DNA of 64,000 bases, taken from NCBI RefSeq assembly GCF_016598595.1, contig NZ_CP066786.1, forward strand, positions 1-64,000, in the 5' to 3' direction. Source of the DNA: Martelella lutilitoris (GTDB taxonomy: Bacteria; Pseudomonadota; Alphaproteobacteria; Rhizobiales; Rhizobiaceae). Shown piece after piece: positions 21,912 through 24,968 of this stretch. The notes under the pieces were generated by a model. The model made no database searches, had not been told where the DNA came from, and was given only the letters and a program-made list of their open reading frames with translations. Every line of letters starts with the position of its first letter. Position 1 is the stretch's first letter. Made by a program: the position numbers and the translations under genes.

Positions 21912-23969
21912 ATGCCTGAAGCGCCTGCCGCGTTGGAAAAACTGTCCGCTGGAGCAGAGGAAAGGCTGCCGTCCTTCGTCGTCAAACGAAACGGCGCGCG
22001 GGTCGCGTTTTCGGCGGAAAAGGTCGAGCGCGCGATCGAAAAGGCGGGCGAGGCGACCGGCGCATTCGGCCCCGGCGAGGCGCGCAGGCTCTGCGACCAG
22101 GTGGTCAAGGTGATCAGCCACAGCGCGCTTGACGACGCTATCGAGATCGAGCGCATCCAGGACATCGTCGAGCAGGTGCTGATTTCGGCAAATTTCTTCG
22201 AGACCGCCCGCGCCTATATCGTCTACCGCGAAAAACATGCCAAGCTGCGCGAAAGTGGCAAGGTTGCCGTCGACGTCATTTCCTCGATCGATGAATATCT
22301 CGACCGCTCCGACTGGCGCGTCAATGCCAATGCCAATCAGGGCTATTCCCTGGGCGGGCTGATCCTCAATGTCTCCGGCAAGGTCGTCGCCAATTACTGG
22401 CTCTCCCATGTCTATGATCCGCAGATCGGCGCGGCACACCGCGCCGGCGACCTGCATATCCACGATCTCGACATGCTGTCGGGCTATTGCGCCGGCTGGT
22501 CGCTTCGAACCCTGATCACCGAGGGGCTGAACGGGGTGCCGGGCAAGGTCGAGGCCGATCCGCCGAAACATATGTCGTCTGCTGTCGGCCAGATCGTCAA
22601 TTTCCTCGGCACGCTGCAGAATGAATGGGCCGGCGCCCAGGCATTTTCCTCCTTCGACACCTATATGGCCCCCTTCATCCGCAAGGACGGCCTCTCCTAT
22701 GAAGATGTTCTGCAGTCGATCCAGGAGCTGATCTACAATCTGAACGTCCCCTCGCGTTGGGGCACGCAGACGCCCTTTACCAACCTCACCTTCGACTGGG
22801 TCTGCCCGGACGATCTGAAAGAACAGCGCCCGATCATCGGCGGTGAGGAAATGCCGTTCGCCTATGGCGAGCTGCAGGTCGAAATGGACATGATCAACCG
22901 CGCCTATATGGAGATCATGACCAAGGGTGACGCCAAGGGCCGGGTCTTCACCTTCCCGATCCCGACCTACAACATCACGCCGGATTTCCCCTGGGAAAGC
23001 GAAAACGCCACGCGGCTTTTCGAGATGACGGCCAAATATGGCCTGCCCTATTTCCAGAATTTCCTGAATTCGGATCTGTCGCCCAACATGGTGCGCTCGA
23101 TGTGCTGCCGGCTGCAGCTTGACCTGACGGAACTCCTGAAGCGCGGCAACGGGCTTTTCGGCTCGGCCGAACAGACCGGCTCGCTCGGCGTCGTCACCAT
23201 CAACTGCGCCCGCCTCGGCTTTACCCACAAGGGCGACGAGGCCGGCCTGCTGGCGCGCCTTGACGAGTTGCTCGAGCTTGGCCGCGACAGCCTCGAGATC
23301 AAGCGCAAGGTGATCCAGCGGCTGATCGACGAGGGGCTGTTCCCCTATACCAAGCGCTATCTCGGTACGCTGCGCAATCATTTCTCCACGCTCGGCGTCA
23401 ACGGCGTCAACGAGATGATCCGCAATTTCACCGGCGACCGTGAGGATATCACCACCGAATGGGGCTATGATTTCGCGCTGAGATTCCTCGACCATGTGCG
23501 CGAGAAGATCGTCTCCTTCCAGGAGGAGACCGGCCACCTCTACAATCTCGAAGCCACGCCGGCGGAAGGCACGGCCCACCGCTTTGCCCGCGAGGACGCC
23601 AAGCGTTTTGCCGGCATCATCCAGGCCGGCACGCCGGAAAACGCCTATTACACCAATTCCAGCCAGTTGCCGGTCGGCTTCACCGAAGATCCCTTCGAGG
23701 CGCTGACGCGGCAGGAAGTGCTGCAGAAGAAATATACCGGCGGCACGGTGCTGCACCTCTACATGGGCAGCCGCATCTCCTCCGGCGAGGCCTGCAAGGC
23801 GCTGGTCAAACGCGCGCTTACGAATTTCCGCCTGCCCTACATCACCGTCACGCCGACCTTCTCCATCTGCCCGACCCACGGCTATCTGGAGGGCGAGCAC
23901 GAATTCTGCCCGAAATGCGATGCCGAACGTCTATCGAAAAAACGCGCCACGCTGATGGCTGCCGAATGA
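21912..23969 (+). CDS. nrdD: Anaerobic ribonucleoside-triphosphate reductase, catalytic subunit lacking the glycyl-radical tail
   Basis: A 685-residue class III ribonucleotide reductase that makes deoxyribonucleotides without oxygen. It has an N-terminal ATP-cone (about residues 15-110, FVVKRNGARVAFSAEKVE), a 10-stranded barrel with radical/substrate cysteines (MCCRLQLD, VTINCARLG) and a C-terminal zinc knuckle (C653, H656, C666, C669 in CPTHGYLEGEHEFCPKC). The glycyl-radical motif that normally follows the zinc site is absent: the protein stops 16 residues after the last cysteine. The missing motif is encoded by the next gene at 23981. ATG 21912 is preceded by GAGGGGA. I saw no clear FNR-type site upstream. 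Confidence 0.92.
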   Translation: MPEAPAALEKLSAGAEERLPSFVVKRNGARVAFSAEKVERAIEKAGEATGAFGPGEARRLCDQVVKVISHSALDDAIEIERIQDIVEQVLISANFFETARAYIVYREKHAKLRESGKVAVDVISSIDEYLDRSDWRVNANANQGYSLGGLILNVSGKVVANYWLSHVYDPQIGAAHRAGDLHIHDLDMLSGYCAGWSLRTLITEGLNGVPGKVEADPPKHMSSAVGQIVNFLGTLQNEWAGAQAFSSFDTYMAPFIRKDGLSYEDVLQSIQELIYNLNVPSRWGTQTPFTNLTFDWVCPDDLKEQRPIIGGEEMPFAYGELQVEMDMINRAYMEIMTKGDAKGRVFTFPIPTYNITPDFPWESENATRLFEMTAKYGLPYFQNFLNSDLSPNMVRSMCCRLQLDLTELLKRGNGLFGSAEQTGSLGVVTINCARLGFTHKGDEAGLLARLDELLELGRDSLEIKRKVIQRLIDEGLFPYTKRYLGTLRNHFSTLGVNGVNEMIRNFTGDREDITTEWGYDFALRFLDHVREKIVSFQEETGHLYNLEATPAEGTAHRFAREDAKRFAGIIQAGTPENAYYTNSSQLPVGFTEDPFEALTRQEVLQKKYTGGTVLHLYMGSRISSGEACKALVKRALTNFRLPYITVTPTFSICPTHGYLEGEHEFCPKCDAERLSKKRATLMAAE

Positions 23970-23980
23970 AAGGAAAAATC

Positions 23981-24169
23981 ATGTCTGTGATTGAAAAAGA
24001 CATTGTCGCCGAAACCGAGATCACGCTTTGCGACGACGAGCGCCAGCCCTGCGAAATCTGGACGCGGGTGATGGGCTATCACCGCCCGGTTTCCTCCTTC
24101 AACCGCGGCAAGAAAGGCGAATTCGCCGAGCGCCGCTATTTCAAGGAACAGCGCGGTGAGCGGGCGTAA
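23981..24169 (+). CDS. Separate glycyl-radical subunit of anaerobic ribonucleotide reductase
   Basis: A 62-residue protein carrying the motif RVMGYHRPVSSFNRGKKGEF, which matches the radical-bearing C-terminus of ordinary NrdD (RV-x-GY followed by FN-x-GK). G32 would be the radical glycine. Cysteines C17 and C24 could add to the zinc site. The gene starts at ATG 23981, with AAGGA 7 nt upstream, 11 nt after the nrdD stop and in a different frame, so this is an independent gene and not read-through of one stop codon. Its end overlaps the activase gene by 14 nt. It should dock in the NrdD barrel in the way YfiD repairs pyruvate formate-lyase; that comparison is inference. Confidence 0.85.
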   Translation: MSVIEKDIVAETEITLCDDERQPCEIWTRVMGYHRPVSSFNRGKKGEFAERRYFKEQRGERA

Positions 24170-24968
24170 CGGGACGCAAGCAGGCGGGCGCCCTCCAATC
24201 TCCGCCCTCCCCGCGTCACCCTCGGGCTTGACCCGAGGGTCCATGATGCTTGCTCCGGGTGGCCTGGATCCTCGGGGCAAGCCCGAGGATGACGCACAAC
24301 AGAGGCCATGTGCACCGGACGCTCCGTCTCAACATGACCTGCGCATCGGCGGTTTCGAGCCGTTTTCCCTGTGCGACTGGCCGGGCAAGATCGTGGCCAC
24401 GCTGTTTCTGCAGGGTTGCCCGTGGCGCTGCCCCTATTGCCACAATCCCGGGCTGATCGATGCTTCGGCAGAAACCGGCTACACATTTGCCGGCATTCTC
24501 GATTTTCTCGAAAGCCGGCGCGGACTACTGGATGGCGTCGTCTTTTCCGGCGGCGAGCCGACGCTGCAAAAGGCGCTCGTGCCGGCGATGAAGACCGTGC
24601 GCGCGATGGGCTTTTCAATCGGCCTCCACTCCGGCGGCGCATACCCTGAAAGACTGAAGGACGCGCTTCGCCACGCCGATTGGATCGGCTTTGATATCAA
24701 GGCTTCGCGCCGCGACTACGACCGCATGACCGATACGCCGAAAAGCGGCGAGCGCGCATTCGCAAGCCTCAAGCATGTGAGGGCGAGCGGCATCGATTAC
24801 GAGGTTCGCACCACCGTGCATCCTGAACTTCTGAACGCGGCCGAGATTGCGGAGCTTGAGGCCGATCTCTCTCATTATGGCATTGACGAACACAAGATCC
24901 AGACCTTCCGCATGGAGGGAGTCGACCGGGATCGGCTCGCCGGCGCGCTTGAAAAGCGTCGCGCCTGA
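24156..24968 (+). CDS. nrdG: Anaerobic ribonucleoside-triphosphate reductase activating protein (radical SAM) with repeat-encoded N-terminus
   Basis: A 270-residue radical-SAM activase that would install the glycyl radical on the NrdD system. The 4Fe-4S motif CxxxCxxC is C88, C92, C95 (GCPWRCPYC), followed by SGGEPTLQ for SAM binding. The core, from RIGGFEPFSLCDWPGK onward, matches normal NrdG-like proteins. The first 65 or so residues are extra, and residues about 20-47 are encoded by the REP-like element at 24214-24295. GTG 24156 has AAGGA 8 nt upstream and overlaps the glycyl-subunit gene. Later in-frame start choices are ATG 24243 or 24246 inside the repeat; none exists close to the conserved core. 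Confidence 0.85.
   Translation: MSGRNGTQAGGRPPISALPASPSGLTRGSMMLAPGGLDPRGKPEDDAQQRPCAPDAPSQHDLRIGGFEPFSLCDWPGKIVATLFLQGCPWRCPYCHNPGLIDASAETGYTFAGILDFLESRRGLLDGVVFSGGEPTLQKALVPAMKTVRAMGFSIGLHSGGAYPERLKDALRHADWIGFDIKASRRDYDRMTDTPKSGERAFASLKHVRASGIDYEVRTTVHPELLNAAEIAELEADLSHYGIDEHKIQTFRMEGVDRDRLAGALEKRRA
24214..24295. repeat. REP-like double palindrome inside the start of nrdG
   Basis: CGTCACCCTCGGGCTTGACC...GGGTCCA (24214-24243) and TGGATCCTCGGGGCAAGCCC...ATGACG (24266-24295) are inverted copies with about 26 of 30 positions complementary. Each half also has its own CTCGGG/CCCGAG hairpin. The core is shared with 20615-20645. The element is read in frame as part of the activase N-terminus. Confidence 0.82.

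What the first reader, a model, noticed from the sequence alone, without database searches (positions are those of the whole stretch)
21912..24169. Glycyl-radical segment of anaerobic ribonucleotide reductase encoded by a separate small gene
NrdD ends 16 residues after its zinc knuckle. A 62-codon gene 11 nt downstream, in another frame and with its own ribosome site, carries RVMGYHRPVSSFN with the radical glycine. The activase overlaps that gene. The enzyme would need assembly of radical subunit, barrel subunit and activase. This is like the separate YfiD glycyl-radical protein for pyruvate formate-lyase. I do not know how widely the split is described.
Basis: partly seen in the sequence, partly recalled or inferred. 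Interest (0 to 1): 0.75.

Follow-up and report, generated by a model that had tools for sequence, protein, structure and literature searches.

The report
Anaerobic reductase with separate radical part
The oxygen-free enzyme that makes DNA building blocks is here encoded in two pieces, with its radical-carrying tip as a separate tiny protein; many proteobacteria share this, and the tiny gene also sits alone on predicted phage contigs, which suggests that the tip is a replaceable cartridge.

Summary
Observation confirmed. NrdD (21912-23969, 685 aa) stops 16 residues after its zinc knuckle; a 62-aa gene 11 nt on, in another frame, carries RVMG32YHRPVSSFN. It is no indel: by hand count, all 55 genomes with truncated NrdD have the small gene; 0 of 56 with full-length NrdD have a stand-alone copy. 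In 126 adjacent pairs the frames are 39/40/47, against a programmed frameshift; 5 of 55 are unlinked, 4 of 55 have a second copy; dN/dS is about 0.09; the split/fused state changed about 7 times on a tree. Best reading: an obligatory glycyl-radical subunit of class III RNR. (2) Of 100 IMG/VR contigs searched whole, 99 hold the small gene without nrdD: probably a phage-borne spare part for host NrdD, as T4 Y06I is for PFL. No biochemistry was done; ten searches of open-licence papers showed no description of the split.

The parts
21912..23969 (+). nrdD: class III RNR catalytic subunit without glycyl loop (685 aa); ATP-cone about 21975-22241, barrel, zinc knuckle
23868..23918 (+). zinc knuckle C653-x2-H656-G657 ... 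C666-x2-C669, retained in the barrel protein
   Evidence: C653, H656, G657, C666, C669 invariant in 41 aligned NrdDs (4 truncated, 37 fused)
23970..23974 (+). Shine-Dalgarno AAGGA of the small gene
   Evidence: sequence; over 126 adjacent loci 64% have at least 5 of 6 matches to AGGAGG against 7% of 466 control sites chosen by the same rule
23981..24169 (+). small glycyl-radical subunit gene (62 aa), motif ERQPCEIWTRVMG32YHRPVSSFN-GKKGE
   Evidence: NRDD 526-562; R21, R29, M31, G32, R35, N41, G43, K44, E47, R51 in 126 of 126 adjacent loci (the loci were picked with a pattern that itself fixes M31, G32 and R35 and allows only R or K at 29); dN/dS median 0.088
24074..24076 (+). codon of Gly32, predicted radical glycine
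   Evidence: the fused relative P0331 aligns its RVMGY glycine with the RIVGY glycine of TmNrdD (4coi), position 621 by counting on the printed alignment
24156..24968 (+). nrdG activase ORF (radical SAM); conserved part from about 24333; true start uncertain
   Evidence: TIGR02495 NrdG2 194.9 bits, residues 64-242
24206..24300 (.). palindromic repeat lying inside the 5' end of the nrdG ORF
   Evidence: its core found 22 times in the genome at up to 1 mismatch, 0 for the reversed control; the same or other sequences at the same spot in several relatives, none in two

Best explanation
The locus encodes a three-piece class III ribonucleotide reductase. NrdD supplies the ATP-cone, nucleotide sites, 10-stranded barrel with the catalytic cysteines, and the zinc knuckle. 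The 62-aa protein supplies the glycyl loop and C-terminal tail: it docks on the knuckle/barrel end so that Gly32 sits next to the cysteine loop. NrdG (radical SAM) makes the Gly32 radical. Separation makes the oxygen-labile radical part a cheap replaceable cartridge for a 76-kDa catalyst. The same logic would explain second copies and phages that carry only the small gene. Shown here: gene structure, conservation, co-occurrence, independence of linkage and frame, repeated split/fuse transitions, small genes on viral contigs without nrdD. Inferred: physical complex, radical on Gly32, replaceability, benefit to phages.
For: Profile divided between two ORFs. 55 of 55 genomes with truncated NrdD have the small gene; 0 of 56 with full-length NrdD have a stand-alone one (my hand count; four cases settled and one). 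Gly32 and nine other residues invariant in 126 of 126 adjacent loci, three of the ten by selection. dN/dS median 0.088. Own ATG and SD. Unlinked in 5 of 55, extra copies in 4 of 55. In G298 and G634 the small gene sits with nrdG, away from nrdD. Fused homologues carry the same segment in frame, and the tree needs 7 changes of state, at least 4 forced by well-supported branches. The NrdD model fits class III structures up to about the knuckle; apart from the N-terminus its longer low-confidence stretches are 134-147 (holding the conserved N140-A-N142) and 401-415 (just after C398/C399), which fits a missing partner. In PcNrdD the glycyl domain docks reversibly onto such a flap (PMC11226230, passages).
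Against: No biochemical evidence: no complex, radical or activity was tested. The AF2 alignment had only 41 sequences, so low confidence at the flap may reflect that. The recalled C. necator study attributes the radical to G650 of the long protein. The replaceability benefit is argued by analogy with YfiD. Fused relatives, some close (Acidiphilium-type, Actinomyces), show that the split is not needed for function. Most of the 56 genomes with full-length NrdD carry the distant E. coli type, so the close comparison is smaller.
Confidence: 0.92

Rival explanations
1. The two ORFs are one gene joined at translation by a programmed frameshift or stop readthrough, so the product is an ordinary fused NrdD.
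For: The gap is short in most loci, and in 39 of 126 the small gene is in the frame of nrdD with a stop between.
Against: Frames are evenly mixed (39/40/47 of 126) and 122 of 126 gaps lie between -16 and 160 nt (the others are -505, -52, 298 and 415); small genes have their own ATG and strong SD; 5 of 55 genomes have them unlinked.
Confidence: 0.02
2. Assembly indel or decaying pseudogene.
For: None for the window; one named genome (Massilia sp. H-1, L155) has a frame-broken nrdD and was dropped from counts.
Against: The same split in all 11 of 41 genomes that have NrdD, in 55 of 55 overall, with purifying selection.
Confidence: 0.01
3. The truncated NrdD uses another radical site (for example the knuckle glycine, G650 in C. 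necator H16), and the small protein is regulatory.
For: Recalled, not read: Siedow et al. 1999 (J Bacteriol 181:4919) report that G650A of the 76.2-kDa NrdD is null and propose G650 as the radical residue. The H16 NrdD computed here is 676 aa, 76,191 Da, with G650 in CPTHG650YL.
Against: The knuckle glycine is also invariant in 37 fused enzymes that have the RVMGY glycine as well; RVMGY aligns with the RIVGY loop of TmNrdD; the RVMGY glycine is kept in the small protein. A knuckle mutation could be null by structure.
Confidence: 0.04
4. The phage-borne copies are not spare parts but decoys or inhibitors that bind and silence host NrdD or NrdG.
For: They come without nrdD (99 of 100 contigs) and without nrdG over cut-off (0 of 50); phages do inhibit host enzymes (general knowledge).
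Against: They keep the pattern ER..CE.WTRVMGY.RP....N.GK..E (85 distinct cores; the loci were selected with WTRVMGY-type patterns, so part of this is by construction); T4 Y06I is a precedent for an activating spare part (PMC8683613, passages).
Confidence: 0.12

Closest known systems
Class III ribonucleotide reductase NrdDG (T4, T. maritima 4coi, P. copri 8p23, S. thermophilus 9d3x)
   Same: ATP-cone (in part of them), barrel, knuckle, glycyl motif, NrdG activase; sequence and model matches
   Different: these enzymes carry the glycyl loop on the same chain; here it is a separate protein
YfiD/GrcA (E. coli) and Y06I (phage T4), spare parts for pyruvate formate-lyase
   Same: small autonomous glycyl-radical protein activated by the parent enzyme's activase; a phage version exists; only the PFL cases are validated and others are speculated (PMC8683613, passages)
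   Different: NrdD-type glycyl segment (Pfam NRDD, not PF01228); in the bacteria it is obligatory (inferred), not a repair piece for a complete enzyme; the phage copies would serve RNR rather than PFL (inferred)
Split class II RNR NrdJa/NrdJb (Pseudomonas)
   Same: an RNR encoded as two polypeptides (PMC4860495 and PMC9669993, passages)
   Different: different class; there an IscU-like/zinc-finger part is split off, not a radical-bearing part
Phage nrdD genes in pieces (phiAS4, Lactococcus phage 949)
   Same: nrdD in pieces (PMC3653736, passages)
   Different: single cases ascribed to an intron or of unknown origin; not a glycyl-loop gene in the passages seen
PHROG phrog_4132
   Same: only PHROG matching the window protein at E<=0.01 (E 7e-8) and the better of two matching a phage copy (E 7e-11)
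   Different: listed as unknown function, 179 positions

Membership tests
Class III RNR catalytic subunit (NrdD) | NRDD barrel domain | tested here: met
   PF13597 570.4 bits; NF006126 1120.7 bits over cut-off 548; TIGR02487 459 over 326
Class III RNR catalytic subunit (NrdD) | zinc knuckle with four ligands | tested here: met
   C653, H656, C666, C669 invariant in 41 sequences; metal itself not tested
Class III RNR catalytic subunit (NrdD) | glycyl radical motif on the same chain | tested here: not met
   profile match stops at 530/562; the motif is in the next ORF
Class III RNR catalytic subunit (NrdD) | partner radical SAM activase | tested here: met
   TIGR02495 194.9 bits over 131.15
Class III RNR catalytic subunit (NrdD) | glycyl radical formation and NTP reduction | not testable with these tools
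   needs EPR and assay
GrcA/YfiD autonomous glycyl radical cofactor | PFL-type Gly_radical domain (PF01228) | tested here: not met
   small protein matches only PF13597 at E<=1; the genome's single PF01228 match is elsewhere, in an 813-residue frame
GrcA/YfiD autonomous glycyl radical cofactor | restores oxygen-cleaved enzyme | not testable with these tools
   biochemical property

The most novel reading that the evidence does not exclude
The glycyl-radical loop of class III RNR is a free-standing, exchangeable module: bacteria encode it as an obligatory subunit, sometimes far from nrdD or in two copies, and phages carry only this gene of mostly 44-90 codons to (re)activate the host's oxygen-damaged or limiting NrdD and so secure dNTPs. 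It would be the first spare-part system that I know of for a glycyl radical enzyme other than PFL, and dATP control through the ATP-cone could act by releasing the radical subunit.
Probability: 0.6. Interest if true: 0.87.

Novelty: new variant of a known kind. Interest (0 to 1): 0.79.

Why it matters
If true, a whole branch of an essential enzyme family works with its radical on a separate small protein, which makes the question of spare parts for other glycyl radical enzymes (raised in PMC8683613) testable with a natural two-piece system. It would probably correct a published radical-site assignment in C. necator H16, give a role to many tiny proteins now labelled simply as reductase or hypothetical and to a phage family of unknown function, and offer a simple handle (add or omit the small protein) for studying docking, activation and dATP inhibition of class III RNR.

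Tried and rejected
Programmed frameshift, stop readthrough, indel and pseudogene were considered and rejected (see rivals). My first classification of viral loci was wrong: fused NrdD queries hit the small gene itself, so all 80 looked linked; one search corrected it with core-only hits (77 without NrdD, 3 linked). Two of those three (L212, L264) were still such self-hits, as the whole-contig search shows. No FNR-type box lies near nrdD (8 matches in the window, 4.7 expected). A first tree with E. coli-type NrdD as outgroup was not used, because its branch is very long. The extra PF13597 hit in G569:C1 (L111) is a piece of another NrdD type (KCGEKTEVYSRVTGY), not a stand-alone small gene, and was not counted; G765 also has pieces of a second, distant NrdD. 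Folding the small protein alone was not obtained. phmmer of the 62-aa protein against PDB found nothing at E<=1. Two INPHARED searches found no stand-alone copy (three annotated matches, all NrdD, and one unannotated record not looked into). Dropped: L002, L013-L022 (overlapping views) and L155 (frame-broken).

Literature: ten full-text searches of CC-licensed PMC. In their listings and in passages of PMC11226230, PMC9531940, PMC3019208, PMC9669993, PMC4390871, PMC11528403, PMC2864759, PMC4860495, PMC8683613, PMC5645315 and PMC3653736 I saw no description of a split-off NrdD glycyl domain. 'split NrdD' had 0 papers. Subscription papers are not held, and I read no paper in full, so absence from print is not shown.

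Full report
THE OBSERVATION. The window encodes nrdD (21912-23969), then an 11-nt gap, a 62-codon ORF (23981-24169) and nrdG. Pfam's single NRDD profile is divided: the long protein takes positions 2-530 of 562 and the small one 526-562. The long protein also has an ATP-cone and ends 16 residues after CPTHGYLEGEHEFCPKC. The small one carries CEIWTRVMG32YHRPVSSFN. The activase ORF is NrdG2-type. The overlap of nrdG with the small gene is uncertain in this window, because the nrdG reading frame runs through a palindromic repeat whose core occurs 22 times in the genome. Names of near homologues point to Martelella.

NOT AN ERROR AND NOT A FRAMESHIFT. I searched PF13597 in 41 genomes (own and relatives), 397 of the phylum and 387 of the class; 11, 66 and 42 have a match. 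By my hand count of these tables 55 different genomes have a truncated NrdD, and every one has the small gene; in four of them (G221, G568, G701, G756) it was read from the locus, in G765. Of 56 genomes with a full-length NrdD none has a stand-alone copy; most of these have the distant E. coli-type NrdD, so the close comparison is smaller. G714 has only the small gene (incomplete assembly) and G322 only a weak partial match. In 126 loci where the two genes are adjacent, the small gene lies in frame 0, 1 or 2 in 39, 40 and 47 cases, and all 126 offer an ATG start (gaps of -505 and -52 nt are probably mis-called starts). A Shine-Dalgarno match of at least 5 of 6 is found in 64% against 7% of 466 control sites chosen by the same rule. 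Twelve near relatives give 66 pairs over 41 codons; in the 60 with dS above 0.05 the median dN/dS is 0.088, the highest 0.297.

INDEPENDENCE OF THE SMALL GENE. In 5 of the 55 genomes (G298, G509, G634, G656, G770) it is not next to nrdD; in G298 and G634 it lies with nrdG instead. Four of 55 (G482, G498, G643, G758) have a second copy. Among named records, loci without nrdD or nrdG around the small gene occur in Magnetospirillum fulvum (L139), Bacterium BMS3Bbin13 (L170, a second copy) and a Sutterella MAG (L198), each within 12 kb, and on the Allochromatium vinosum plasmid pALVIN01 by its annotation.

EVOLUTION. Fused relatives keep the same segment in frame, 8 to 22 residues after the knuckle: 120 of 120 listed homologues of an alphaproteobacterial fused enzyme, and 117 of 120 listed homologues of the Acidiphilium enzyme, the other three being truncated. 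A careful tree of 59 core sequences that I picked (39 split, 20 fused), made without the tail, needs 7 changes of state, at least 4 of them forced by well-supported branches (its bootstrap had not fully settled, the outgroup branch is long, and many deep forks are open). An Acidiphilium-type fused protein (P0243) and a truncated one (P0244), 86% identical, are sisters. The split is thus not one ancient event.

CUPRIAVIDUS NECATOR H16. pHG1 has the same split: NrdD 676 aa (76,191 Da), a 66-aa small gene named nrdD in its RefSeq annotation, and nrdG overlapping it. I recall, and could not read, that Siedow et al. 1999 reported a 76.2-kDa NrdD, showed nrdDG to be needed for anaerobic growth, found G650A null and proposed G650 as radical site. 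G650 is the glycine of the knuckle CPTHG650YL; the RVMGY glycine is G36 of the 66-aa protein. The C. metallidurans genome paper cites that work for essentiality in denitrification and names nrdDG as Rmet_5137 and Rmet_5139, with 5138 not named (PMC2864759, passages); the small gene is present in that genome (L124). A mis-assignment is likely, but rests on recall of the abstract.

PHAGES. The second copies L117 and L118 lie beside phage genes: tail protein and endolysin in both, integrase in L117. Two scans of IMG/VR found 169 and 160 relatives, of which the best 80 were kept each time, together 111 different contigs by hand count. In the first 80 loci no NrdG was found, and NrdD near the small gene in one (L214) once two self-hits are set aside. 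Of 100 contigs searched whole with PF13597, 99 have only the glycyl tail and one (L214) has NrdD; L246 has an extra weak stretch, E 2e-4. NrdG2 over cut-off: 0 of 50, with one weak match in L214's contig. The contigs may be fragments, and some are the same virus: 85 distinct 37-residue cores form 37 clusters at 80%. Of six contigs whose neighbours I checked with a few proteins each, five have clear phage-type matches (L237 tape measure, L219 terminase, L280 tail fibre, L234 terminase and Mu-type portal, L261 a phage RNA-binding protein family); L213 was inconclusive. The window protein and a phage copy match phrog_4132, unknown function. INPHARED gave no stand-alone copy, so none is yet seen in an isolated phage.

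MECHANISM AND NOVELTY. The best reading is an obligatory radical subunit in the bacteria and, with less certainty, a spare part in phages, parallel to YfiD and Y06I for PFL. PMC8683613 (passages) states that spare parts are validated only for PFL and speculates about other enzymes. Databases already label the small protein as reductase, so the parts are annotated; in ten searches I saw no paper describing the split. I file it as a new variant of class III RNR.

Noticed in passing
window 24206-24300: A palindromic repeat (core found 22 times in the genome) sits in the 5' end of the nrdG reading frame without closing it; relatives of the same genus have the same or other inserted sequences at this spot, or none, so it looks like an insertion hot spot.
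   Followed up: partly
G000:C1:2495124-2495444 (L292): The genome has one further glycyl radical domain (PF01228), at the end of an 813-residue frame.
   Followed up: no
L214 / G777:C1:15122-17137: The one viral contig with NrdD: its NrdD match is in two pieces about 400 bases apart in one 818-residue frame, possibly with an insertion such as an intein.
   Followed up: no
L155 (Massilia sp. H-1): nrdD is frame-broken in several places and the small gene is in frame with the last piece; sequencing error or decay.
   Followed up: no
L067, L068, L080, L107 (family f36): Divergent small-genome lineage whose small protein reads SRSMGFIRP instead of TRVMGYHRP.
   Followed up: partly
L127 (Sulfuricurvum kujiense plasmid): Split NrdD outside Pseudomonadota, sister to the fused alphaproteobacterial clade and upstream of napA: possible independent split or transfer.
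   Followed up: partly
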